Shown here one piece after another: positions 51,168-64,000 of a DNA stretch of 64,000 nucleotides (position 1 is its first letter; every line of letters starts with the position of its first letter). A model generated the notes under the pieces. It worked only from the letters and a program-made list of their open reading frames with translations. It had not been told where the DNA came from and searched no databases. The translations under genes and the position numbers were made by a program. The stretch is from Acidimicrobiia bacterium (GTDB lineage: Bacteria > Actinomycetota > Acidimicrobiia > Acidimicrobiales > Poriferisodalaceae). The stretch covers positions 1-64,000 of the forward strand of contig JAJEFK010000054.1 of NCBI GenBank assembly GCA_022820505.1, in the 5' to 3' direction.

Positions 51168-54100
51168 GTGGCCCTAGTGGTGAACTCGGACGATGCGAAC
51201 AGGCGCCTCTTCCCCGCCGGCCCGCTGCGCGGCAGCTCGCTATTGCGGTGCTTGATTGCGGCCCTTGGCGTACTGACCGCTGCTGCGCTGCTGCCGCTCT
51301 CTGCGGGCGCGGCGACCCCTCCGCCAGGGCCATGCGAGTCTGGCTGGGTCGCGCCGGCTCCTGTTTCTGTGACTGTCACCGATGTCCCGATCGAAGTGGC
51401 CTCGACCACTGACGACTACTTTGTTCTGTACATCAGAATCGACAGCAGTTCGCCCACGACAGATCTGCCGATCGCCGTGGTGTTGGGGGAGGATGGGACG
51501 ACCTCTCTCGCGGACAATCTCAGTCCTTTGAGCGCCGATCGCTACCTCGTCGAGAAATACTCGGTGAGCCAGCCTGCCGACATCGACGGCGATTGCATCG
51601 ACGATCTCACCGAACTCGCAGATCTGGGAACTCACAATCCCGTGAATCCCGGGCAAATCAGCAAGAACGCTCTCGGCGCTGTGGCCATTCCGAATCGCAG
51701 CGCATTCGAGACGCTTGCCCTCAAGGGTGTGCCGATCGGCGGATCTTACTTTGGAGCTGTGGAGTACGTCAACTTTTGGATTCTGAATGCCTTGTCTGAT
51801 CGCCCGACTGTCTATTTCATGAATACCAACAATACGATTCGGCACTTGGATTTCGCCAAGAAGCTGGGCTTCCACGACACATTCCGTGATGAAATACGAG
51901 GCACACTCATCTATAACCCAAATGTCGTCGCTCCGGACGGGTCTTTGGGGGTCTACCGCCTTGATCCATCGTCAGCCCATTGGAACGACTTTCCGTTCAC
52001 GCGCGTGGAGCGAGCGTATGAGATTCTCGCGTCAGCGATGCCATTTCTCGACAACAATCTTGCCTACCATCCTATCGGCTGGTCGTTTTTGGACCAGTAC
52101 AATCGCCAGAAGGCAGACTTCGATGCATCGAGGGTCAACGTCTTGTTGCAGGAAGATATCTTGCCGGATGTGGGTTTCATTCCGCTGAATCAGGCGGAAG
52201 GGTATGGTCGTCTGCGGTTGATGGAGGACGGAGAGCATCCGCTGCCGTACGATGTTGCCATCTATCGTTCGCTTCCGAATGATCTGCCCCGTGTTGCTGG
52301 GACGATTACGACGGTGCCTCAGACGCCGTTGTCGCATGTGAACTTGCGGGCAATTCAGAATGGTCTCCCCAATGCGTTCATTCGGGATGCACTGGATGAG
52401 GAGTCCATCGTCTCCCTTATCGGAAGCTACGTTCACTTTTCCGTGACGGCGGATGGGTACACCGTTCGCAAGGCGTCCAAAGCCGAAGTCGATGCGCATT
52501 ACGAGAAGCTGCGGCCAGCACAGACGCAGACGCTGCAGCGTGATTTGAGCGTCACCGAGATCGCATCGCTCGCTGACGTAGAGTTTGCTGACTGGACTGC
52601 GTTCGGCGTCAAGGCCGCCAACGTTGCCGAGCTTACACATCTCTCACTGCCAGATGGTACTGCACCGGTCGGTTTCGCGATTCCGTTCTACTTCTATGAC
52701 GAATTCATGAAGCAGGCGACGGTCACTGAGAAAACTCTGCTCGGCAAGAAGAAATGGCCCGGCGACGAAAAGATCACGCTGGCCGCCGGAACGACGCTGG
52801 CCAGCGCCGTCACGCAGATGCTCGCTCACGCCAAGTTCCAGGCTGACTATGACATCCAAGAAGAGATGCTGGACGACTTGCGTGACGCCATCAAGGATGC
52901 CACCACTCCCCAGTTCATCACTGACGCCTTGACCGCGATGCACGCCAAGTATCCGGACGGACAGTCGTTACGGTACCGTTCGAGCACGAATAATGAGGAT
53001 CTGCCATCGTTCAGCGGTGCCGGTCTCTACAGCTCGAAAACCCAGGATCCTGACGAGACGGCAGATGACGGCATAGACAAGTCGATCAAGAGCGTCTGGG
53101 CCAGCTTGTGGAACTACCGTGCATTTCGCGAACGCGACTTTCATCGCGTCGACCACACCACGGTTGCCATGGGAGTGCTCGTACACCCCAACTACGAAGA
53201 CGAACTCGTCAACGGCGTGGCCGTCAGCTATGACCCATTCACGCATCGCGACGGCATGTTCTACGTCAACTCACAAGTCGGTGAGGACTTGGTCACCAAC
53301 CCCGAACCGCTGTCACGACCGGAGGAGATCCTCCTCGACGCCAACGGCATTGCGACGGTGCTGTCGTATTCGAACCTGAAGGCTTCACGACAGCTGCTCA
53401 TGACCGACGCGCAGATGCAGCAGCTGCGCAGCAATCTCGCCACGATCCACGATCACTTCAAGACGCTGTACGCCGTCCAGACCGGCGACGACTATGCGAT
53501 CGAGATCGAGTTCAAGATCACTGCCGACAACGTGCTGGCCATCAAGCAGGCACGGCCGTGGCTGTTTACCGAACCGCTCGTCGTGCCGAACCCAACCGTG
53601 TCTCTTGGCTTTGTCGACGACCAAGTCACCGAAGGCAACGATCTTCAGCTTGTGGTCACCCGCAGCGGTGGGATTCTGTCGGTACCTCTCAGCGTCGGCT
53701 TCACGGTGCACGAAACCGGCCAGATGCTCGTGAGCACGCTGCCCGCCGAAGTCACGATTCCTGCGAATCAAACCAATGCAACCATCGCTATCGGGACGGA
53801 GCCAGACTCTCAAGCCGAGCACAACAGCATCGTCACCGCCACCCTGAATACTGACGCCGGCTACACCCTCGGCGCTCCTCAGTCAGACACCGCAACTGTC
53901 GAAGACGACGACGGTCCGCTGTGTGATGTTGCGACGGCGGTCGGCCGGGCGCGTGCTGCGTTCGTGTGGCATGTCGACAACAATGGCGGCAACGAGGTTT
54001 GGTTCTGGCAGATCTTGGCCTATCTGGGTGCTGATCCGTTGCCTGCGCTGCCGGGCGGCGCAGTCCTCGCGTCGACCACTCCTGAGGCGGTGAAGACGTT

Positions 54101-57100
54101 CAGCGATGGCAAGTCGTGGCCTGGCTGGGTGCCCATCAACGCCGCCATGTCATGCCATCCCCCGCCGCCCGAGATCAGCATCGCAGCCGGCGCCGACATC
54201 GACGAGGGCGGCGACGCGATCTTCACGGTCAGCGCCGACCCCGCGCCGACAGCCGCGCTGGCTGTGACGGTGGCGGTCGTCGTGTCGGGCGATTTCGGTG
54301 TGTCGCCGGGGTCGCATACGGTGAGGGTCCCCACCACCGGCAGCGCCGCCTTGACTGTCGCTACGACCAACGACAGCGCTGATGAGGCTGACGGGTCGGT
54401 CACTGCGACGGTCGGTGCTGGCAGCGGCTACCGGGTCTCCGTTGCTGCGGGCACGGCCTCTGTTGGGGTGGCTGATGACGATGTGCCTGAGGTCAGCATT
54501 GCTGCGGGTGCTGATGTCGGTGAGGGCGGCGATGCGGTGTTCACGGTGTCTGCCAGTCCTGCGCCGTGGGCGGCTTTGGATGTGTCTGTGGCAGTCACCC
54601 AAGCTGGCGATTTCGGTGTGTCGCCGGGCTCGCGGACGGTCACGGTCCCGACGTCGGGCACGGCGACGCTCACGGTCGCTACGGCCGACGACAGCGCTGA
54701 TGAGGCTGACGGGTCGGTCACTGCGACCGTCGGCATAGGGAGCGGTTACACGGTGTCGGCTGTTGCGGGGACGGCTGCGGTGGATGTCCGGGATGATGAT
54801 GATCCGCCGGTGTCTGATCCTGTGGTGAGCATCGCTGCAGGCAGCGGTATCACCGAGGGCGGCGTTGCGGTGTTCACAGTTGCTGCTGTTCCGGTGCCGT
54901 CTGCGCCGCTGACGGTCGCTGTGTCGGTAGCGCAGGCGGGCAGTTTCGGTGTGTCGCCGGGCTCGCGGACGGTCACTGTTCCCACGTCGGGCAGCATCAC
55001 GCTGACGGTGGCGACGACCGGCGACTCGGTCGACGAGCCGGACGGGTCGGTCACGGCGACGGTCAGCGCCGGCACGGGTTACACCGTCTCTGCGACGGCG
55101 GGTTCGGCGTCGGTGGCGGTGTCTGATGACGATGACCCGCCGCCGGTGGCCGATCGGTGCGTGGCGGTGCTGTCGGGCGACGGGAGCGTGAGCGGGGTGT
55201 GGGCTGCGGGCTGCGGTTCGTCGGCGCGCTCCGGCCGCTATGCGCGGTATTACACGTTCTCGCTGGACAGCCCGGGCCGGGTGACGGTCGATCTGAAGTC
55301 CCCGGCTGACACGTATCTGTACCTGCGCCGCGGTGCGGGCCAGAGGTCGGGTGCTGCGTTGGCGTCCGACGATGACGGCGGCGGCAACTTTGACTCGCGG
55401 ATCAGCCGGACGCTTGCGGCGGGCGGTTACACGATCGAGGCGACGACCTATCACGCGTCGACGCCGGGGAAGTTCACGCTGACAGTGGACGGCATCCCGA
55501 CACAGACCGTGGCACCGCCGGACCCGGAGATCGCTATCGCTGCGGGCAGCGGGATCACCGAAGGCGGCGACGCGACGTTCACGGTCACTGCGGTTCCGGC
55601 GCCGTCGGCGGCGTTGGATGTGACGGTGGCGGTGACGGCAGCGGGCGATTTCGGTGTGTCGCCGGGGTCGCACACCGTCACGATCCCCACGACGGGCACC
55701 GCCACGCTGACGGTGGCGACGACCGGCGACTCGGTCGACGAGGCTGACGGGTCGGTCACTGCGTCGGTCAGCGTCGGGACGGGTTACACGGTCTCCGCAA
55801 CGGCCGGGTCGGCGTCGGTCGCGGTGGCCGACGACGATGCGCCGCCGACGGTGTGCGTGCCGAGTCTGCCGTGGGATGCGGTGACGGTGGCTGAGGTGAC
55901 CGGCTGGCGCGGCGAGCTCTCCCATGCTGCCCATCAGCAGCGCTGGGACCGGGTGCTGGCCGCTTTGGGGGTGGACACCGGCGAGGAGGCGATGACCGTG
56001 GCGGACGCGCAGGCGGTCAAGGCGCGGATCGACAACTCCCGCTGGGACCGCACCGTGCGCACGCTGCAGGCCATGGCCCAATGCGACACCGACCCGCCAC
56101 CTGCGCCTGCGGCGGACCCCGAGATCAGCATCGCTGCGGGCGGCGGGATCACTGAAGGCGGCGACGCGACCTTCACGGTCACTGCTGATCCGGCGCCGTC
56201 GGCGCCGCTGGCAGTAAGCGTCACGGTGGCCCAGACAGGCGACTTCGGCGTAGCGACCGGCACGCGCCAGGTGACCGTCCCGACATCGGGGACAGTCACG
56301 CTGACGGTGGCCACTGTGAACGACTCCGCGGATGAAGCCGACGGGTCGGTCGCTGTCACGGTCAACGGCGGCACCGGCTACACCGTGTCCGCGGCCGCGG
56401 GCACAGCGACGGTCGCGGTCGCAGATGACGACGATCCGCCTCCGCCGGTGGCTGATCCTGAGGTGAGCATCACCGCCGGCGGCGGGGTCACCGAGGGCGG
56501 CGACGCGACGTTCACGGTCACTGCTGTTCCGGCGCCGTCGGCGGCTTTGACGGTGGACGTGACCGTGGCTCAGGTCGGCGATTTCGGTGCCGCAACGGGG
56601 TCGCGGTCGGTCACGGTGCCGACGTCGGGCAGCGTCACGCTGACCGTCGCCACGACCGGCGACAGCACCGACGAGCCGGACGGGTCGGTGACGGTCGCGA
56701 TCGACGCCGGCAGCGGCTACACGGTGTCCCAGTCGGCGGGCACCGCGACGGTCGCGGTGGCCGATGACGACGACCCGCCGCCGAACGCGACGCCGTCGTT
56801 GTCGATCAGCGACGCGTCGGCGGACGAGGGTGGCACGCTGACGTTCACGGTGACGCTCAGCCCCGCCAGCGACCGGTATGTGTGGGTGCACTACTACGCG
56901 CGGCCCAGGTACGGGGCTGGGCTGTCGGCGACCTTCGCGGACTTCGAACAGGCCTACGGGATGCTGACCTTCAGACCCGGCGAGACAACCAAGACCGTCA
57001 CCGTGGCAGCGGTCGACGACAGCCGAACCGAAGAAGACGAGACGTTCGTAGTCGTCCTGTACGCCGAGGTCCAAGCAGCAGTCGCCGACGGCGAAGGCAT

Positions 57101-57125
57101 CGGCACCATCACCGACAACGACTGA
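51168..57125 (+). CDS. secreted PEP-synthase-like dikinase domain protein with Calx-beta repeats
   Basis: 1985 residues, GTG start (other GTGs at 51177 and 51180). Order: signal peptide (LIAALGVLTAAALLPLSAGA, cleavage near 49); unassigned region with a Ca-loop-like DIDGDCIDDLTEL; phosphohistidine swivel-like motif GTITTVPQTPLSHVNLRAIQ (His390); PPDK/PEP-synthase ATP-grasp from about 470 (AFGVKAANVAELTHLSL, LRYRSSTNNEDLPSFSGAG near 601, IKSVWASLWNYRAFRERDF, AIKQARPWLF near 795); then about eight Calx-beta-like units to the C-terminus, interrupted by a PPC-like domain (about 1328-1445) and two small Trp-rich helical modules (about 916-1000, 1561-1648). The PEP TIM barrel is absent. The chemistry is unknown. 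The first third is visibly AT-richer than the rest. Confidence 0.85.
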   Translation: MALVVNSDDANRRLFPAGPLRGSSLLRCLIAALGVLTAAALLPLSAGAATPPPGPCESGWVAPAPVSVTVTDVPIEVASTTDDYFVLYIRIDSSSPTTDLPIAVVLGEDGTTSLADNLSPLSADRYLVEKYSVSQPADIDGDCIDDLTELADLGTHNPVNPGQISKNALGAVAIPNRSAFETLALKGVPIGGSYFGAVEYVNFWILNALSDRPTVYFMNTNNTIRHLDFAKKLGFHDTFRDEIRGTLIYNPNVVAPDGSLGVYRLDPSSAHWNDFPFTRVERAYEILASAMPFLDNNLAYHPIGWSFLDQYNRQKADFDASRVNVLLQEDILPDVGFIPLNQAEGYGRLRLMEDGEHPLPYDVAIYRSLPNDLPRVAGTITTVPQTPLSHVNLRAIQNGLPNAFIRDALDEESIVSLIGSYVHFSVTADGYTVRKASKAEVDAHYEKLRPAQTQTLQRDLSVTEIASLADVEFADWTAFGVKAANVAELTHLSLPDGTAPVGFAIPFYFYDEFMKQATVTEKTLLGKKKWPGDEKITLAAGTTLASAVTQMLAHAKFQADYDIQEEMLDDLRDAIKDATTPQFITDALTAMHAKYPDGQSLRYRSSTNNEDLPSFSGAGLYSSKTQDPDETADDGIDKSIKSVWASLWNYRAFRERDFHRVDHTTVAMGVLVHPNYEDELVNGVAVSYDPFTHRDGMFYVNSQVGEDLVTNPEPLSRPEEILLDANGIATVLSYSNLKASRQLLMTDAQMQQLRSNLATIHDHFKTLYAVQTGDDYAIEIEFKITADNVLAIKQARPWLFTEPLVVPNPTVSLGFVDDQVTEGNDLQLVVTRSGGILSVPLSVGFTVHETGQMLVSTLPAEVTIPANQTNATIAIGTEPDSQAEHNSIVTATLNTDAGYTLGAPQSDTATVEDDDGPLCDVATAVGRARAAFVWHVDNNGGNEVWFWQILAYLGADPLPALPGGAVLASTTPEAVKTFSDGKSWPGWVPINAAMSCHPPPPEISIAAGADIDEGGDAIFTVSADPAPTAALAVTVAVVVSGDFGVSPGSHTVRVPTTGSAALTVATTNDSADEADGSVTATVGAGSGYRVSVAAGTASVGVADDDVPEVSIAAGADVGEGGDAVFTVSASPAPWAALDVSVAVTQAGDFGVSPGSRTVTVPTSGTATLTVATADDSADEADGSVTATVGIGSGYTVSAVAGTAAVDVRDDDDPPVSDPVVSIAAGSGITEGGVAVFTVAAVPVPSAPLTVAVSVAQAGSFGVSPGSRTVTVPTSGSITLTVATTGDSVDEPDGSVTATVSAGTGYTVSATAGSASVAVSDDDDPPPVADRCVAVLSGDGSVSGVWAAGCGSSARSGRYARYYTFSLDSPGRVTVDLKSPADTYLYLRRGAGQRSGAALASDDDGGGNFDSRISRTLAAGGYTIEATTYHASTPGKFTLTVDGIPTQTVAPPDPEIAIAAGSGITEGGDATFTVTAVPAPSAALDVTVAVTAAGDFGVSPGSHTVTIPTTGTATLTVATTGDSVDEADGSVTASVSVGTGYTVSATAGSASVAVADDDAPPTVCVPSLPWDAVTVAEVTGWRGELSHAAHQQRWDRVLAALGVDTGEEAMTVADAQAVKARIDNSRWDRTVRTLQAMAQCDTDPPPAPAADPEISIAAGGGITEGGDATFTVTADPAPSAPLAVSVTVAQTGDFGVATGTRQVTVPTSGTVTLTVATVNDSADEADGSVAVTVNGGTGYTVSAAAGTATVAVADDDDPPPPVADPEVSITAGGGVTEGGDATFTVTAVPAPSAALTVDVTVAQVGDFGAATGSRSVTVPTSGSVTLTVATTGDSTDEPDGSVTVAIDAGSGYTVSQSAGTATVAVADDDDPPPNATPSLSISDASADEGGTLTFTVTLSPASDRYVWVHYYARPRYGAGLSATFADFEQAYGMLTFRPGETTKTVTVAAVDDSRTEEDETFVVVLYAEVQAAVADGEGIGTITDND
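54171..56790 (+). repeat. tandem Calx-beta-coding repeats
   Basis: Six long units of about 315 bases begin with codons for PE[IV][SA]I.AG, followed by EGG.A.FTV, then GDFG, TVTVPT.G, LTVAT, DE.DGSV.A.V and GYTVS, ending VADDD. They are very similar at DNA level, so recombination or assembly collapse is possible. Confidence 0.8.
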
Positions 57126-57131
57126 CGCCAG

Positions 57132-60100
57132 TCACACGAGGGCGAGCCAGGTGACGCAGTAGACGTCGTCAGGCGTGATCTCGGGCAGCGGCTCGGGCGG
57201 TTCGTAGGGCTGCAGGCCCAGCGCGTCGATCACCCTGATGATCTCGATGGCCTGCTCAGCCGGGCTAGTCGAGCTCTTGAGTGCAGCAGCGAGCGTTCGG
57301 ATGGTTCGCTCCGGGTAGGGAGCAGTGATCGTGTCGACGGTGCGGTCGATGTCGTCTTGCGTCATCTCCGGTGGAGCGTGGTCACGCACTACTTGTGCGG
57401 CGCGGGCCAGCCGGGGCGAAATCCGCGGCTCGAGGTTCGCCTTGTCGGACATGACGTTCCATTTGCGGACAATGTCGTCCTGGGCAACTTTCCACGCCTC
57501 GAATGCGCCTTCGACATCGAAGTCTTCCAATGTGCGCGGGGTCTCGAAGCCGGCAGGCGGGCGGGCGAGGTCGAGGCAGGCCAGCGACTCGTCCACCACG
57601 TCGCCGGGAGATGATCCGTCCCGGCCGACGAATCGGAACAGGGGCGTCGGGTGGTCGCCGACGCGGGCGCAAAAGACGTAGCCGGCTCGCCCGTCGCCTG
57701 AGCGGGCTGCCATTCCCGATCCGGAGCCCCAGGGCAGCGAGGCGATGTGCTCCGCGAGATCTGCGTCCTCCATTGCCTGGCGCAGCTCTTGGCGGAACTC
57801 CTCACCCGACAGGACGCCCTTCGCTGTTCCGCCCCGCTCGAACATGGTTGCGTCCTCGCGACGGATGCGTTCTATCTCCTCGCGTGTCTCGGTGAAGTTG
57901 AGTTCGTGATGCTGGCCTTGATCGGGCAGTATCTCGCCGACGCCCACACTGGCCGCGGCTTGCGCGATCTTGCGGTGCAGTCGTTCGGAGAGCCCGAGCA
58001 GGTCGTCCAGCCGGCTGTCGGGAAAGACGCAGCGCAGAAATACCTCAGCGTGACGTGAGCCGATGCGGTCGATGCGCCCATGACGCTGCACGAGGCGCAT
58101 CGGGTTCCACGGAAGGTCGTAGTTGACGATGTGGCAGGCCTGCTGCAGGTTCACGCCTTCGGCCAGCACATCGGTTGCCACCACGATGTCGTACAGGTCG
58201 TCGTCGCGGCCCTCGGGCGCATCGGTGGTGCGCGGGGCGAATCCCCACAGCACCGATTCCTTGTCGGCAGAGCCCGAGCTGCCTGCCACCGAAGCGATGC
58301 GCCCCCGGTAGGCAGCGAGCCGAGCGTCGGTGTGGGTCACCGTTTCGAGGTGCTCGACGATCCAGTGGACGGTGTCGGCGTAGTAGCTGAAGATCAGCAC
58401 CTTGTGCCGGTCGCGGGTGTCTTCGGCACCGATGCCGTGGGCACGTGCGTCGGCGGCGATAGCGGCAAGCTCATCGGTGAGGGCAGCCAGGTTCGGGTCT
58501 GCATCCCGTGTCACAGTGCGTGCCTCGGCTGCGAAGTCGCGCAGCAGGTCTCGGTCACGCTCGGTGTCCTGGCGCAACCGCTCGATGTCGAATTCTGCAG
58601 CATCGTCGGTGACTTGGACCAGGTGGTCCAAGAAGGCGTCGCGCTGCTTGTCGTCGAAATCATCGGTGTCGGCGGCGATCCAGTCCGCCAGTACGTCCCC
58701 GGTGCCCACCCGGCCTCCGTCAAGCAGCGACAGGAACGCGTCGTGGCTGTTTGCCATGCGCACGCACGTCTCTGCGAAGGCGTGGGGCGACGATTCGAAA
58801 CGCTTCAACAGGCCCGAGCGCAGCAGCCCGGTGAGCTGCAGTTCGTAGGTGTCGATCGCGTGGTCAAGCCGGTAGCGCGAGGGTGCGTAGCGCGCCAGTG
58901 TGAGGGTGTTTGTGTCAGTGGATTCGTCAGTCAGCGGGCGCCCAGCGCTTGCCGGATCATCGGCCTTGGCAACGTCAGACTCCCCGGTGCTGACGACAGG
59001 GTCGGCATCGAGCGCTGCGGCGAACCGGTCGAAGAATCCGGGCAGGACCGCGTCGAGGTCGTAGTTCACCTTGCGGACCCGAGGGGTCGGGAAGACGATC
59101 GGCGTGTCGTGTCCGCCTATGCGCACGATGTCGTTGGGGTAGAAGCGCTTCACGAACGAACGGGTGCGGCGCACGGCCACGGCGTCGAGCACGTCGAAGA
59201 GATGCTCAGGAGTCAGGTCGTCGGGGTTGAGCGCGACGGCCTTGGCGAAGTGATCGCGCAGCGAGCCGATGCCGACGTCGGCGAATTCCGCGTCGTTACG
59301 AAGGAAGTAGCCCAGCAGGTGGTACAAGTCCCACAGGCTGTTGTTTACCGGCGTCGCAGTCAGCATGACGAGTTGCTTCGGCGGCGATCCGGCGAGCAGC
59401 CGTCGCAGCGCTTGTGCCCGCTGCGTGGATGGATTGCGCAGATTGTGCGCCTCGTCGATCACCACCATCGCGTAGTCGGTGACGTAGCGCTGTTCGAGCT
59501 TGGTGCCAGTGGTGTGCTCAGGGTTGAGTCGCCCGTCGCGCATCAACGCCTCGAACGACACGAGCTCCATCGGCAGGTTGTGCTCGGCTCGGAACGCACG
59601 CCACGGGCCGTCCCGCAGCGTGGCAGGCGTGATCACCAGCACCTTCTGGCGACGCTCCAGGGCGGCTTCGCGAATCAGCTCGCCGGCGAGGAACGTCTTG
59701 CCGAGACCAACCTCGTCGGCCACCAGCACGCCGTGGCGCTCGTCGAGGATGCGGCGCGCGCGCCACAGTCCGTCTGCTTGGAACGAGGTGAGGTGGATCT
59801 GCGGGGCGCCCTCGGCATCGGCTTCGGCTTGCAGCTCGTCGCCATATCGCTCCCACAGCATCCGCAGGTACACGAGCTGTGGTGAGTGCGGTTCGAACCT
59901 GGCCTCGAACAGGGCGGAGAGATCGTACGGGGCCGCTTGATCCCACAGCTCGTCGAACCACTCCTGCACTTGTGTCACGACGTACGGTGCGTAGTTGCCG
60001 AGGTTCAGCTCCAGGTTGGACGCGAGTCCGGCGTAGGTGAAGTTGGACGATCCAGCCACGACGCCGTGCGATCGGTCACCCACCACGAAGGCCTTGCCGT

Positions 60101-60572
60101 GCAGGAATCGGCCCTCGAGACGCCGCACTTCCACGCTTGGCGATGCCAGCCAATCGGTGAGGCGTCGCGCCGCTGCGTGGGACTGGCGGCTGAAGCCCAA
60201 GTGGTCGCGTTCGAACCGGAGGAGCTGTTCCTGTTTCGCCAGCGCGCTGTGCATCCGGGCCCGAGCTGCCCGTGCCGGGTGAGCCGGCTCGGTGTGCAGT
60301 GCTCGTCGGCGGTTCTCCGGCGGCTGCGGCTCGGCGCCCAGCAGCAGCCGGACGCCTGATGCATGGTCGAGCGCATCAGCCAGCAGGGAGTACCCGCCGA
60401 CATTGAAATAGGCGGTCGCAATGTCCACTGCGGCACCGCCCACGAAGCCGGTAGCGGCATGAGCGATGAACCCGTTCAGCGCCTGCGCCACGGTCCGGCC
60501 GTCACGGTTGACCGCCAGTTCGGGCTTGCTCGGCATCTCAGCCATTGCGGACTGACCCGAAGCGTCGCTCAC
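57132..60572 (-). CDS. PLD-nuclease / SNF2-type helicase fusion, defence type
   Basis: 1146 residues. Residues about 40-195 form a phospholipase-D-like nuclease domain with one HKD half-site: FLHGKAFVVGDRSHG (His158, Lys160) and AGSSNFTYAGL near 174. An SF2/SNF2 helicase follows: Walker A VADEVGLGKTFLA near 286, TPATLRDGPW, DEAH at 373 in VVIDEAHNLRNP, TATPVNNSLWDLY near 405, and motifs V-VI DVLAEGVNLQQA and QRHGRIDRIGSRHAE near 830. The tail is helical. Such PLD-SNF2 proteins pair with adenine methyltransferases in DISARM- and BREX-like phage defence. GTG start; later in-frame ATGs exist. It converges on the secreted giant gene with a six-base gap. Confidence 0.88.
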   Translation of the reverse strand: MSDASGQSAMAEMPSKPELAVNRDGRTVAQALNGFIAHAATGFVGGAAVDIATAYFNVGGYSLLADALDHASGVRLLLGAEPQPPENRRRALHTEPAHPARAARARMHSALAKQEQLLRFERDHLGFSRQSHAAARRLTDWLASPSVEVRRLEGRFLHGKAFVVGDRSHGVVAGSSNFTYAGLASNLELNLGNYAPYVVTQVQEWFDELWDQAAPYDLSALFEARFEPHSPQLVYLRMLWERYGDELQAEADAEGAPQIHLTSFQADGLWRARRILDERHGVLVADEVGLGKTFLAGELIREAALERRQKVLVITPATLRDGPWRAFRAEHNLPMELVSFEALMRDGRLNPEHTTGTKLEQRYVTDYAMVVIDEAHNLRNPSTQRAQALRRLLAGSPPKQLVMLTATPVNNSLWDLYHLLGYFLRNDAEFADVGIGSLRDHFAKAVALNPDDLTPEHLFDVLDAVAVRRTRSFVKRFYPNDIVRIGGHDTPIVFPTPRVRKVNYDLDAVLPGFFDRFAAALDADPVVSTGESDVAKADDPASAGRPLTDESTDTNTLTLARYAPSRYRLDHAIDTYELQLTGLLRSGLLKRFESSPHAFAETCVRMANSHDAFLSLLDGGRVGTGDVLADWIAADTDDFDDKQRDAFLDHLVQVTDDAAEFDIERLRQDTERDRDLLRDFAAEARTVTRDADPNLAALTDELAAIAADARAHGIGAEDTRDRHKVLIFSYYADTVHWIVEHLETVTHTDARLAAYRGRIASVAGSSGSADKESVLWGFAPRTTDAPEGRDDDLYDIVVATDVLAEGVNLQQACHIVNYDLPWNPMRLVQRHGRIDRIGSRHAEVFLRCVFPDSRLDDLLGLSERLHRKIAQAAASVGVGEILPDQGQHHELNFTETREEIERIRREDATMFERGGTAKGVLSGEEFRQELRQAMEDADLAEHIASLPWGSGSGMAARSGDGRAGYVFCARVGDHPTPLFRFVGRDGSSPGDVVDESLACLDLARPPAGFETPRTLEDFDVEGAFEAWKVAQDDIVRKWNVMSDKANLEPRISPRLARAAQVVRDHAPPEMTQDDIDRTVDTITAPYPERTIRTLAAALKSSTSPAEQAIEIIRVIDALGLQPYEPPEPLPEITPDDVYCVTWLALV

Positions 60573-60655
60573 GGTATCCCGGCGTGTGAGCGTTCACCAG
60601 GCTCGCTCGCGCTGTCGATACAGCCGGTGATCTCTTCGGCCTGCGGACCTGTCAT
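60569..60655 (-). CDS. 28-residue mini-ORF linking methyltransferase and helicase
   Basis: ATG at 60655 overlaps the methyltransferase stop (ATGA), and its TGA overlaps the GTG of the helicase (GTGA). The peptide begins MTGPQAEEITGCIDS and ends AGIP. Exact junctions on both sides suggest a peptide that keeps ribosomes moving through the operon. It has no recognisable family and may be fortuitous. Confidence 0.35.
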   Translation of the reverse strand: MTGPQAEEITGCIDSASEPGERSHAGIP

Positions 60656-61431
60656 GTCAATCTCCTGAAGTGTTCGATGACCGCCGCGAGCCGGTCCAAG
60701 TAGCGCTCGGGCCGCTTCTCGTCGAACGTGGTGTAGATGACCTCGAGATCGTCCTCGTCAAGGCCGTACAGGTGAGCTACGCACGCGTCGAGTTCGTGGA
60801 TCAGGTCCCGCTTGGTTGCCTCGTCATTCGCTGAGCCAACAGGCACGCCGACCTCTGAGGCCCACTCAGCGAAGCGGTCATCGACTGCAGCCAGCCGTCC
60901 CGTAATCTCCACCACCCGATCCCGCACAGGATTTCCCTTGCCCGGGTCCGGAATGGACAGCAATCCCAACTGCTCGAATGTCATGTGCAATTCGACACTG
61001 CGGCGAGCCTGCCAGTCACAGGGCATGGACGAAAGCACACCGAGAAGGAAGGCCTCATCCGTCGGCGTGCCAGCAACCCTGAGGAGATACGGCGCTTGAT
61101 GCACTATGACTCGCTCACCGGGCACGAGCGCTGCGATCAGCGAGCGTGTATCAGTCGCCCTAGCTACGTCACGAAAGGTGATTCGTGCGTGCAGACACGG
61201 CAACGTATCCGGATTGTCAGTAGTGGCGTGTTCCTGTGCGGCGAAGGCCGAGGCGGATTTCGAATGCTGCGTCAGGCGTTTGTCGTGTAGGTGCTCGATC
61301 ATCTCATCGGCAACGGCGCTGTCGTAGTAGGTGCCCGTGTCGGGCTCCCAGATGTTGAACGACGAGCCCTTGTAGACGGGCCAGATGTCAGGCATCTCGA
61401 GGCCCACTTGTTCGCCGAGCCGCAGCGCCAT
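60652..61431 (-). CDS. C-terminal fragment of Eco57I/PglX-type DNA methyltransferase
   Basis: 260 codons in frame, with an internal ATG at 61431 that is probably not a real start. The sequence continues the target-recognition and C-terminal part of the methyltransferase whose N-terminal part lies at 61971-64000: LGEQVGLEMPDIWPVYKGSS, then LPCLHARITFRDVARATDTR, IVHQAPYLLRVAGTPTDEAF and LGVLSSMPCDWQARRSVELH, the usual end of class I adenine methyltransferases of R-M and BREX systems. It is separated from the N-terminal part by repeated segments, homopolymers and frame breaks, so as assembled it is a fragment. Confidence 0.75.
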   Translation of the reverse strand: MALRLGEQVGLEMPDIWPVYKGSSFNIWEPDTGTYYDSAVADEMIEHLHDKRLTQHSKSASAFAAQEHATTDNPDTLPCLHARITFRDVARATDTRSLIAALVPGERVIVHQAPYLLRVAGTPTDEAFLLGVLSSMPCDWQARRSVELHMTFEQLGLLSIPDPGKGNPVRDRVVEITGRLAAVDDRFAEWASEVGVPVGSANDEATKRDLIHELDACVAHLYGLDEDDLEVIYTTFDEKRPERYLDRLAAVIEHFRRLT

Positions 61432-61628
61432 CGTCGTTCACGAACCGCTCCCGGTCCCGGGTCGCGTCGAACTCACGGACAGGGCGGAAGCGCCATCGTC
61501 GTTCATGAAGAGGTGTCGGTCGTGCGTCGCGTGGAGCTCGGCGATTGGGCGGAAGCGCCATCGTCGTTGAGGAAGCGGTGCCGGTCGGTCGTGGCGTTGA
61601 GGTCGCCCTGGACCGGTCGGAACCGCCA
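61425..61628 (-). repeat. three diverged direct repeats of a methyltransferase segment, out of frame
   Basis: Units start at 61425, 61490 and 61555 (periods 65, 65 and 68), with a partial fourth at 61623. On the minus strand each encodes a variant of FRP[VI], then ATxDRxxF and NDDGA, but a period of 65 shifts the frame each time. The units are about three-quarters identical, not perfect copies. Confidence 0.8.
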
Positions 61629-61663
61629 CGTTCGTGGCCGTTCCTGGTGCTCGAGAATCTTGC

Positions 61664-61742
61664 GGGGGGGGGGGGGGGGGGTCCGCGCGGCGTGCGCGTT
61701 CCCGCCAGAGAGAGGGGGGGGCGGGGGCCCCCCCCCCCCCCC
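61664..61742. other. homopolymer cluster: G18, then G8-C-G5-C15
   Basis: G runs from 61664 to 61681, and G8, one C, G5 and C15 from 61714 to 61742. The 32 bases between them resemble a diverged copy of the codons just beyond the second tract. Such tracts inside a gene are either slippage (phase-variation) sites or assembly junctions. Confidence 0.85.
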
Positions 61743-61970
61743 AGCGCGTCTGGCGCATTCGCGCCATCGAAACGCGGCTGCAGCTTCATACGCCGCCACA
61801 CGCGGAAGGCATCACGTCGCGGAATCTGCGGAAAGGCTGCTGTGTTGGACCAGCTCAGGAATTCTGAGACCGGGATCAGTTCGGGCTTGCCGTCGACCAG
61901 TTCTCGAAAGTGAGCGAGCGAGCGGGCCGGTCCGGGGTAGATCGCTACGTGCGGGTCGTCGGCTTCGGCC

Positions 61971-64000
61971 TCAAAGCCACCCCCATGGTTCGGCGCCCCG
62001 GCTGCGCTTGCGGGCCGCGACGATGGCGATCGTGTAGCGGCCGTCGACGTCGTCGAACGTCCATTGTTGGGCATTGAGGCACGTGACGACCGTGAGTTGC
62101 GCGTGACCGCGGCCAGCACCACCGTGTAGGAGTTGTGGACTCCCTCGAACACCCAGCCCTTGTGATTGATGAGGGTTGAGGTGGCGATGCACTGGATTTG
62201 CCCCCCCCCCCCCGTCGATGCTGACAATCTCCTGACGCCAGTTCGCCATGCCCGCGTCAGAGACGGCCGAACGCGGCAAGACGATGCCCAGCCTGCCGCC
62301 ATCGCGGCAGAGCGCGAGATTCGCCCACGCGAACGCCTTATACAGGTCGGTCTGGCCGGTGCCGAGATGGGGGAACGCCGCTCGCAGGATCAGCTTGAGA
62401 AACTCCGCGCGTTCTCGCTCGGACTCGAACTCCCCTGCGAGATCAGGCCGTTGTGCCTCCAGCGTGTCGATGCGTTCCCGGCGGCGCGCAACCGGCAGCG
62501 AGCGCACGCCGGGCAAGTGCATGCCCCACCACACTTCGCGGTCGACCACCACTTTCTCCCACGGCGGGTTGCCAAGCAGGCAATCGAAGCCGCTCCGCCC
62601 TGATCTCGCGAATACCTCGGGCCATGTCGTCGGGTAGTGAACGGGCGCCAGTCGTTCGATGACGCTTCGCACCACAGGGTCATCGGCCAGTGCGGCGATG
62701 CGAGCCGGGGTGAAGTCAAAATCGCGATGTATCTCGATCATCCCGGCACGGACAGCGGTCGCCACGTCGAACACGTCGTCGATTGGTCGGACTGCTGAAC
62801 GAGTGGCGAAGTGAGCTTCCCTCGCCGCCGCCACTTCCGACTTGTCAGCGTCATTCAGCGCAGCGAGCCGAGCCAGCGGCTCGTGGATCGCCTCGATCAT
62901 GATCTCCAACTGGTGTACGAACAGCGAGGGTTGCGATGTGTCTCCTTTGGGCCGAACAGCCAACGCGCCGTCCTCCACCGAAGCAACGCCGGTGAGGCTG
63001 TCGCCGTGGACGAGGTTGTGGTCGAGGAAGGACAGCGGGAGGCCGGGCACGAAGGTGTGGACCCAGATGGCGAGACGCGCCAGCTCGACGGCAACGCGGT
63101 TCTTGTCGACGCCGTAGACGCAGTGTCGAGCAATCTGGCGACGCAGTAGCGAGCCAGTCTCGATCTCGATGCCGTCGCCCAGGTCGCCGAGTTCGTCCAT
63201 GGCGACGTTTCGCAGCCTGTTCAGTTCCGCCGTGATCGCCGGAACCGGGTGTAGCGAAAGCCATGCCGACAGACGTGCCTCGATCCGGTCGACTGTCGCC
63301 ACGAGGAAATGAGCGGAACCCATGGCGATGTCTGCACACCGGAAGTCGAAGAACGCCGCAGCCACCCCAGCGTCGTCATCAGCGTTTCGCAGCGTGTCGA
63401 GTCGGGCGAGGTGGTCGTCGAGCGCAGGTTCGAGCGCGTGATCCAGCAAGTGCTCTACCGCGAACGGCTTGGTGAAGTAGGAACCTGTCGCCTTGCGGGT
63501 GCCGGAAAGGTTGTGGAAGTACACCTCGCCGGCCTTCACCACCGCCTCGTCCTTCGCTCCGGCAGGCACATACTGCAGGTCGCTTTTGACTTTCTTGACG
63601 GTCAGATCGTCAGGTGCAACTGACAGCTTCGATTCCAGCAAACCCTCATAGATCGTTCCAAACTCCCGCACCGACAGCGACCGGAAGTCGACGGGACCCA
63701 GCCCCTGAGGGCCGTGGTCGACCAGCGCCGCCGCAAGAGCGGGACCGAACTCGGCGTTAGTGAGGCGCAACTGTGCGATCGCTGCGCCGGTAGGGCTGAC
63801 CTTCGGATCCTCAGAGAACAGGCCTCCGTTGTAGGTCGGCACGCCCCAGTCGGCGTTGCCCTGGTTGACCGCATCCCACAGGCCGCATACGTCATCCCAC
63901 ATGTCGGTGGCGCGCTTGTCGAAATGAGTCCTGGCGTTGTGCTCGCCATCGGCGAGTCGTTGAGCCATGCGCGACAGCGAGTGATCCGCGTAGCGGCCGT
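61971..64000 (-). CDS. Eco57I/PglX-type class I DNA adenine methyltransferase, N-terminal part (5' end outside window)
   Basis: The frame is open to the right edge; the ATG at 63968 is internal to conserved sequence, so the gene starts beyond the window. Features in order: PTYNGGLFSEDP, FGTIYEGLLESKL, KATGSYFTKPFAVEHLL (methyltransferase entry helix), the SAM motif I CADIAMGSAHFLVATVDRIE, YGVDKNRVAVELARLAIWV and the catalytic FDCLLGNPPWEKVVV near 62560. Such enzymes make N6-methyladenine in type IIG, BREX (PglX) or DISARM-like systems. The good frame ends at the C13 tract (62201-62213); beyond it, sequence continues in other frames (LINHKGWVFEGVHNSYTVVL, then SEFLSWSNTAAFPQIPRRD). As given the gene is disrupted. 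Confidence 0.8.
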   Translation of the reverse strand, partial: GRYADHSLSRMAQRLADGEHNARTHFDKRATDMWDDVCGLWDAVNQGNADWGVPTYNGGLFSEDPKVSPTGAAIAQLRLTNAEFGPALAAALVDHGPQGLGPVDFRSLSVREFGTIYEGLLESKLSVAPDDLTVKKVKSDLQYVPAGAKDEAVVKAGEVYFHNLSGTRKATGSYFTKPFAVEHLLDHALEPALDDHLARLDTLRNADDDAGVAAAFFDFRCADIAMGSAHFLVATVDRIEARLSAWLSLHPVPAITAELNRLRNVAMDELGDLGDGIEIETGSLLRRQIARHCVYGVDKNRVAVELARLAIWVHTFVPGLPLSFLDHNLVHGDSLTGVASVEDGALAVRPKGDTSQPSLFVHQLEIMIEAIHEPLARLAALNDADKSEVAAAREAHFATRSAVRPIDDVFDVATAVRAGMIEIHRDFDFTPARIAALADDPVVRSVIERLAPVHYPTTWPEVFARSGRSGFDCLLGNPPWEKVVVDREVWWGMHLPGVRSLPVARRRERIDTLEAQRPDLAGEFESERERAEFLKLILRAAFPHLGTGQTDLYKAFAWANLALCRDGGRLGIVLPRSAVSDAGMANWRQEIVSIDGGGGANPVHRHLNPHQSQGLGVRGSPQLLHGGAGRGHAQLTVVTCLNAQQWTFDDVDGRYTIAIVAARKRSRGAEPWGWL
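62201..62213. other. C13 homopolymer (G13 on coding strand) in the methyltransferase
   Basis: On the coding strand a G13 run follows the codons for IVSID. With 12 or 15 G the frame would continue into IQCIATSTLINHKGW; with 13 it does not. This is the arrangement expected of a slippage switch. Confidence 0.8.

What the first reader, a model, noticed from the sequence alone, without database searches (positions are those of the whole stretch)
60652..64000. Defence methyltransferase carrying switch-like G tracts
Directly seen: an Eco57I/PglX-type methyltransferase is interrupted by G13, G18 and mixed G/C tracts on the coding strand, and restoring G12 at 62201-62213 rejoins the correct frame. Established: Streptomyces coelicolor pglX, the methyltransferase of the phage growth limitation system, phase-varies through a poly-G tract. 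Inference: this locus may be a phase-variable phage defence in a different actinobacterial class, with the methyltransferase and PLD-helicase toggled together.
Basis: partly seen in the sequence, partly recalled or inferred. Interest (0 to 1): 0.8.

Follow-up and report, generated by a model that had tools for sequence, protein, structure and literature searches.

The report
Reading-frame switch inside a DNA-marking defence enzyme
A DNA-marking defence gene found mostly in genomes named as sponge bacteria carries slippery repeats, each followed by two or three copies of the same short enzyme part written in different reading frames, so a slip of one letter should change which version of the part is made (probably changing which DNA letters the enzyme recognises) rather than simply breaking the gene.

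Summary
The tracts are real. Homologous loci carry repeats at the same positions, so they are not a local assembly error. The gene is a Type IIG-like adenine methyltransferase next to a PLD/SNF2 helicase in Acidimicrobiia; it is not a Pgl system. Each repeat stands just upstream of a short coding segment that is tandemly duplicated out of frame. Segment A (end of the methyltransferase domain) has two copies 92 bp apart. Segment C (recognition domain) has 2-5 copies, mostly 65-74 bp apart; in the window all three frames hold one. Offsets are 2 mod 3 in 95 of 96 cases. Repeat and duplication occur together almost without exception in about 50 loci; units are 1, 2, 4, 5, 8 or 10 bp, never a multiple of 3. 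Each copy is conserved as protein in its own frame. The C copies are three conserved variants that differ where BrxX contacts a base (a motif-level match only). Near-identical loci (98.7-99.4%) differ in repeat length. Best reading: slippage selects which segment version is translated. Switching, methylation and defence were not tested. Related mechanisms are known (Helicobacter pylori Type IIG enzymes; C-terminal phase variation); staggered-frame paralogous cassettes appear new.

The parts
61971..64000 (-). Type IIG-like adenine methyltransferase, N-terminal part in the assembled frame (gene start at about 65156, outside the window); ends in state 'A2' with ...AEPWGWL*
   Evidence: ORF list; PADLOC/Pfam
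62201..62213 (-). Repeat 1: G13 on the coding strand, between the methyltransferase body and segment A
   Evidence: repeats at the same position in 28 of 31 two-copy homologous loci counted
62099..62185 (-). Segment A copy 1 (TLINHKGWVFEGVHNSYTVVLAAVT), frame that continues into segment B
   Evidence: segment HMM; listing
62004..62084 (-). Segment A copy 2 (TCLNAQQWTFDDVDGRYTIAIVAAR), 92 bp downstream in the -1 frame; its frame ends at the conserved stop 61971-61973
   Evidence: own-frame selection
61945..61948 (-). Conserved GTAG at the start of segment B (Val codon GTA) that gives the third frame a TAG stop
   Evidence: 28 of 32 two-A loci versus 3.8% expected and 0 of 23 single-A loci
61766..61945 (-). 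Segment B (start of the recognition domain), same frame as A copy 1
61664..61742 (-). Repeat 2: compound G15 / C5GC8 / C18 on the coding strand, between segments B and C (exact make-up doubtful)
61569..61628 (-). Segment C copy 1 (WRFRPVQGDLNATTDRHR), frame f0; frame stops 61505-61503
61507..61560 (-). Segment C copy 2 (WRFRPIAELHATHDRHLF), frame f2; frame stops 61440-61438, just before an ATG (61431) in the frame of D
61439..61495 (-). Segment C copy 3 (WRFRPVREFDATRDRERF), frame f1; frame stops 61390-61388, next to the internal ATG of D (ATGccTGA)
60652..61431 (-). Segment D ORF (C-terminal recognition part, WPVYKGSSFNIW...), separately open from ATG 61431 or ATG 61395
   Evidence: (REase_MTase_IIG 1.1e-47, model positions 1132-1355)
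57132..60572 (-). Partner PLD/SNF2 helicase, intact, conserved next to the methyltransferase in nearly all loci long enough to show it

Best explanation
A frame-addressed cassette switch in a two-gene (Type IIG-like methyltransferase + PLD/SNF2 helicase) system.

Shown from sequence: the gene has repeat tracts of unit length not divisible by 3, each immediately upstream of paralogous copies of one short segment placed in successive reading frames, and every copy is under purifying selection in its own frame.

Inferred: replication slippage in a tract changes the frame in which the ribosome enters the cassette, so a different copy is read in frame. At repeat 2 the choice is among three versions of a recognition-domain loop (residues QGD.N / AE.H / RE.D), so slippage probably changes the base recognised at one position of the target. 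D is then either fused or made as a second polypeptide by stop/start coupling (NTGA overlap). At repeat 1 the choice is between A1 (full-length enzyme), A2 (methyltransferase domain ending cleanly before the recognition domain) and a third frame that stops at a conserved TAG. The result would be a clonal population with mixed methylation specificities, useful against phages that have acquired one methylation pattern.
For: Repeat and duplication go together: two A copies with a repeat at J1 in 28 of 31 counted, none in the single-A loci; 39 of 39 counted loci with two or more C copies have a repeat at J2, none of the single-C loci (Fisher p about 1e-11 each, not corrected for phylogeny). Units of 1, 2, 4, 5, 8 and 10 bp, none divisible by 3, with at least 13 (J1) and 23 (J2) unit-type changes on the tree while the duplications changed only 2 and 3 times. 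L080, nested in a two-copy clade, has a single C and no repeat. Copy offsets are 2 mod 3 in 32/32 (A) and 63/64 (C). Codon changes are 51-72% synonymous in each copy's own frame versus 6-20% in the other frames (A1, A2, C1-C3 of three-copy loci); the same direction holds in disjoint species pairs. Loci 98.7-99.4% identical (L038, L039, L059) have G6/G9/G11, (CT)18.5/11.5/14.5 and G22/G11/G12. All three states occur: J1 11/6/15, J2 9/7/9. A C-frame stop overlaps a D-frame start as NTGA in 30 of 37 multi-C loci versus 0 of 8 single-C loci. Variable C residues fall at the motif position of BrxX K681/D684, and the A loop at F592..598, known base contacts.
Against: No reads, proteins or methylomes were available, so switching within a population is inferred from between-species length differences. 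Most assemblies are short-read MAGs; tract lengths may be wrong (for example G50 near a contig end in L037). The match of segments A and C to BrxX loops is by motif; profile alignment is not significant (E 0.49 and 0.055) and the AlphaFold model is mediocre (mean pLDDT 67). In the window no frame reads C and D as one chain, so D would have to work in trans, and the window itself has no NTGA overlap (it has ATGccTGA). The A2 state has no recognition domain and its use is unexplained. In two-copy loci the C1 state was never the assembled one (0 of 12).
Confidence: 0.74

Rival explanations
1. Ordinary on/off phase variation: the tracts only switch the methyltransferase off by frameshift, as in Streptomyces pglX or Campylobacter Cj0031c; the extra copies are incidental.
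For: Tracts lie inside the reading frame and one frame per junction gives the longest product; pglX and Cj0031c are precedents.
Against: Out-of-frame copies are conserved as protein in their own frames, are present almost exactly where a repeat is present, and differ from each other in the same residues.
Confidence: 0.15
2. Frame-buffering: the staggered copies serve to keep the enzyme working whatever the tract length, without changing specificity.
For: Every frame at repeat 2 of three-copy loci contains one complete C copy, so each state yields a C segment.
Against: The copies are not equivalent: flavours are kept distinct within each locus apart from recent extra copies in L085. Buffering alone does not explain why hypermutable tracts are retained through 13 and 23 or more changes of unit type.
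Confidence: 0.15
3. Decaying pseudogene with accumulated frameshifts.
For: The window locus has no single open frame through C and D.
Against: Own-frame synonymous bias in every copy, conserved stops and start/stop overlaps, an intact conserved helicase partner.
Confidence: 0.03
4. Assembly artefact (poly-G from two-colour sequencing, strain chimaeras).
For: MAG source; odd compound tract at 61664-61742; G50 near a contig end in L037.
Against: Same architecture in records from many projects and in multi-megabase contigs or chromosomes (L063 CATQHL, L065 OY282370, L088 OY282367), with repeats of 2-10 bp units that such artefacts do not make; copies conserved at 92 and 65/68/74 bp spacing across genera.
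Confidence: 0.03
5. The tracts act by transcriptional slippage or ribosomal frameshifting, giving several protein versions in one cell instead of clonal switching.
For: Long poly-G and poly-C runs can in principle slip in transcription (general knowledge).
Against: Tetra-, penta-, octa- and decanucleotide repeats at the same positions fit DNA slippage better; tract lengths differ between near-identical loci.
Confidence: 0.08

Closest known systems
Helicobacter pylori Type IIG enzymes JHP1272 and HP1353-HP1354 (PMC3936762)
   Same: Type IIG enzymes with two homopolymeric tracts; the first tract switches activity, the second changes DNA specificity by adding a domain similar to part of the recognition domain.
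   Different: There the second tract adds one extra C-terminal domain. Here each tract precedes 2-5 paralogous copies in successive frames, unit types are replaced while the copies stay, and the system has a helicase partner in Acidimicrobiia.
C-terminal phase variation (Helicobacter canadensis PMC2823697; Neisseria gonorrhoeae PMC5320596)
   Same: A late repeat switches between protein ends encoded in three frames.
   Different: In the passages read, the alternative ends were mostly short or fused to the next gene. Here they are versions of one module, each conserved in its own frame.
Phage growth limitation PglX of Streptomyces coelicolor (PMC4365076)
   Same: Adenine methyltransferase in an actinobacterium with poly-G phase variation, presumed defence role.
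   Different: Different methyltransferase family by profile score; no PglZ in the genome; no Pgl neighbours among the flanking genes tested.
Campylobacter jejuni Type IIG phase variation (PMC4889913)
   Same: Type IIG enzyme switched by a tract.
   Different: By its title and abstract start, phase variation of one enzyme; staggered copies are not mentioned there. The paper was not read in full.
BREX BrxX/PglX (PDB 9ewz; PMC11842806)
   Same: Same overall methyltransferase plus recognition-domain fold by structure comparison (Z 13.4, rmsd 4.0, 344 aligned), and motif-level match of base-contact loops.
   Different: Low sequence similarity; no BREX genes beside it.

Membership tests
Type IIG restriction-modification enzyme | Whole-length match to a Type IIG model | tested here: met
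   PADLOC PDLC03620, 863-934 bits over nearly the whole model for repeat-free homologs; window pieces match model positions 391-986 and 1132-1355
Type IIG restriction-modification enzyme | Eco57I-type methyltransferase domain | tested here: met
   PF07669 9e-11, above gathering cut-off
Type IIG restriction-modification enzyme | Endonuclease domain in the same chain | not tested
   The N-terminal part (outside the window) was not searched for a nuclease; cleavage may instead come from the PLD helicase
Phage growth limitation (Pgl) | PglX-family methyltransferase | tested here: not met
   15-25 bits to PglX models versus 432-934 bits to Type IIG; 19 bits versus cut-off 400 for NF033451, tested on homolog L068
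Phage growth limitation (Pgl) | PglZ present | tested here: not met
   No PF08665 match in the 95.5% complete genome
Phage growth limitation (Pgl) | PglW and PglY present | not tested
   -
DISARM class 1 | DrmMI and DrmD | tested here: inconclusive
   Helicase 184.7 bits versus NCBI DrmD cut-off 610; methyltransferase scores higher on the Type IIG model than on DrmMI
DISARM class 1 | DrmA, DrmB and DrmC next to them | tested here: inconclusive
   Five flanking proteins matched no Drm model; the rest of the genome was not searched
Phase-variable contingency locus | Repeat tract with unit not divisible by 3 inside the coding region | tested here: met
Phase-variable contingency locus | Tract length differs between near-identical sequences | tested here: met
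   L038, L039, L059
Phase-variable contingency locus | Length variation within one population | not testable with these tools
   no reads

The most novel reading that the evidence does not exclude
Probability: 0.55. Interest if true: 0.9.

Novelty: new variant of a known kind. Interest (0 to 1): 0.82.

Why it matters
Phase variation is usually read as on/off, with out-of-frame DNA as nonsense. Here the out-of-frame DNA is conserved as protein in its own frame, so a one-base slip would substitute one enzyme part for another. That would be a compact way to switch restriction specificity without recombinases or inverted repeats, in bacteria whose records are largely sponge-associated, and annotation pipelines would record such genes as frameshifted or broken. 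It gives a direct test: methylomes of cells in different tract states should show different motifs.

Tried and rejected
Pgl or BREX membership. Local assembly artefact (homologs, including multi-megabase contigs). Pseudogene (own-frame selection). Direct sequence link to solved structures: phmmer gave nothing; profiles gave only weak hits to CamA and BseCI. hhalign against E. coli BrxX was not significant, so the residue-level match to base-contact positions rests on motif and is marked as inference. A PglX from the same order was fetched but not useful for mapping loops. One accession look-up failed. The idea that a start codon in the frame of B restarts translation after the A2 stop was rejected for most loci: no such start lies between them.
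Full report
WHAT IS THERE. The window is contig C21:1-64000 of a 3.29-Mb, 95.5% complete MAG; its closest named homologs are Acidimicrobiia MAGs. On the minus strand lies an Eco57I-type adenine methyltransferase that matches PADLOC's Type IIG model, followed by a PLD/SNF2 helicase (57132-60572). The helicase is next to the methyltransferase in nearly every locus long enough to show it, including repeat-free Geodermatophilus and Blastococcus loci. Tested flanking genes include recG and rsmD and no other clear defence gene.

THE OBSERVATION. G13 on the coding strand at 62213-62201 is confirmed. The G18 is on the plus strand, so the second tract reads G15, C5GC8, C18 on the coding strand. Runs of 12 or more G/C occur at six places in the genome, three of them here.

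RELATIVES. A scan of species genomes gave 57 loci. Several homologs carry poly-G or poly-C at the same two places. Others have GA, CT, tetra-, penta-, octa- or decanucleotide repeats there instead. Repeat-free homologs run through as one chain and define five segments: M (methyltransferase), A (its last part), B, C and D (recognition part).

STAGGERED COPIES. Searching three-frame translations with HMMs of these segments showed that in repeat-bearing loci A is as a rule present twice, 92 bp apart in 31 of 32 loci (104 bp in the other), and C two to five times, mostly 65, 68 or 74 bp apart. Of the 96 offsets, 95 are 2 mod 3, so each copy lies in the frame before the previous one. Some loci duplicate C only and keep a single A without a repeat at J1. 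Eight loci have D two or three times with a third G tract inside the upstream D copies; D copies are 66-88% identical. L047 also shows a second, contig-truncated D. With three C copies, each of the three frames reads exactly one.

REPEAT AND COPIES GO TOGETHER. J1 is 15-16 bp and repeat-free in every single-A locus, and holds a repeat in 28 of 31 counted two-A loci. J2 holds a repeat in all counted loci with two or more C copies and in none with a single C (L056, where only one C copy was detected beside a repeat, was not counted as single-copy, and the counts entered were taken by hand). A tree of the methyltransferase body needs 2 changes for A duplication and 3 for C duplication but at least 13 and 23 changes of repeat type. 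No unit length is divisible by 3. L080, inside a two-copy clade, has one C and no repeat. The Fisher tests are not corrected for phylogeny; the turnover of repeat types is the stronger argument.

EACH COPY IS PROTEIN-CODING IN ITS OWN FRAME. Codon changes between loci are 51-72% synonymous in each copy's own frame and 6-20% in the other frames for A1, A2 and C1-C3 (in two-copy loci 72% and 39% against 8-25%). In disjoint species pairs the own-frame synonymous/nonsynonymous counts are A1 86/58, A2 87/69, C1 45/22, C2 34/24, C3 35/27, against far lower ratios in the other frames. The three C copies are distinct, in constant order in most three-copy loci: RPVQGDLNATTD, RPIAELHATHD, RPVREFDATRD; single-copy relatives carry one such variant or a close one.

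STOPS AND STARTS. The A2 frame ends in ...P[RW]GW[LP]* in most loci. The third frame ends at a TAG formed by a GTAG at the start of B, found in 28 of 32 two-A loci (expected 3.8% of Val codons) and 0 of 23 single-A loci. A C-frame stop overlaps a D-frame start as ATGA, GTGA or TTGA in 30 of 37 multi-C loci and 0 of 8 single-C loci. In two-copy loci, one frame usually fuses C2 to D and the C1 frame ends on an internal start of D. In the window the junction is ATGccTGA plus an earlier TGA-acgacg-ATG.

LENGTH VARIATION AND STATES. L038, L039 and L059 are 98.7-99.4% identical in the methyltransferase body but have G6, G9, G11 at repeat 1 (read from the sequences), (CT)18.5, 11.5, 14.5 at repeat 2 and G22, G11, G12 at repeat 3. 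Assembled states across loci are J1: A1 11, A2 6, third 15; J2 (three or more copies): C1 9, C2 7, C3 9. The window is assembled in the A2 state.

WHY SPECIFICITY. A structure model (mean pLDDT 67) matches BseCI, TaqI, CamA, BrxX and MmeI. In the E. coli BrxX-DNA structure the MTD loop 587-601 contacts the last base pair (residue 598) and K681/D684 contact base pair 2. I checked these residues in the E. coli HS sequence: F592..I595..E598-V599 and K681-G-L-D684-T-N. Segment A reads WVFEGVHNSY (A1) or W[TA]FD.VDGRY (A2), with S or R at the place of 598. Segment C reads R-E-L/F-D, A-E-L/F-H or QG-D-L/F-N at the place of 681-684. The optimal profile alignment agrees for C but is not significant, and for A it places the loop elsewhere. 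This is a motif-level inference, not a demonstration.

WHAT IS KNOWN. H. pylori Type IIG enzymes have two tracts, the second changing specificity by adding a C-terminal domain (PMC3936762). C-terminal phase variation through three frames is described in H. canadensis and N. gonorrhoeae (PMC2823697, PMC5320596). I found no description of tandem paralogous modules in staggered frames behind a repeat in six searches of an open-access library; most subscription papers are not in it. I therefore rate this a new variant of a known kind, with a fair chance that the device itself is new.

LIMITS. No switching, protein, methylation or defence was measured. Tract lengths come from assemblies, mostly short-read MAGs. 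The use of the A2 (recognition-domain-less) state is unexplained. Sponge origin of most loci is inferred from record titles and isolate names, not tested.

Noticed in passing
G000:C16:26015-26026 (L010:3516-3527) and G000:C43:73499-73510 (L011:3500-3511): Two of the three other G12+ places in the genome lie at or near the 5' ends of long ORFs (about 1100-1190 codons, stop to stop) with repeats resembling the window's Calx-beta protein; candidate phase-variable surface proteins.
   Followed up: partly
G000:C51:93824-93836 (L012:3825-3837): A G13 tract in a stretch without a clear gene, with locally repeated sequence around it.
   Followed up: no
window 51168-57125 (+): A 1985-aa ORF with a PPDK N-terminal (ATP-binding) domain and a C-terminal Calx-beta domain, an unusual combination in one chain.
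   Followed up: no
L062, L064, L077, L085, L039, L041, L045, L059: The C-terminal recognition part D is itself duplicated or triplicated, with a third poly-G tract near the end of the upstream copies; the downstream copy is a separate ORF.
   Followed up: partly
L037, L038, L040, L042, L043, L044, L053: Contigs end shortly after repeat 1, repeat 2 or the D1 tract, as expected if the repeats are variable in the population or hard to assemble.
   Followed up: no
Two-copy loci L048, L049, L051, L054, L057, L060, L065, L075, L081, L086, L088, L090: In none of the 12 two-C loci is the assembled state C1; 9 are in the copy-less frame and 3 in C2.
   Followed up: no
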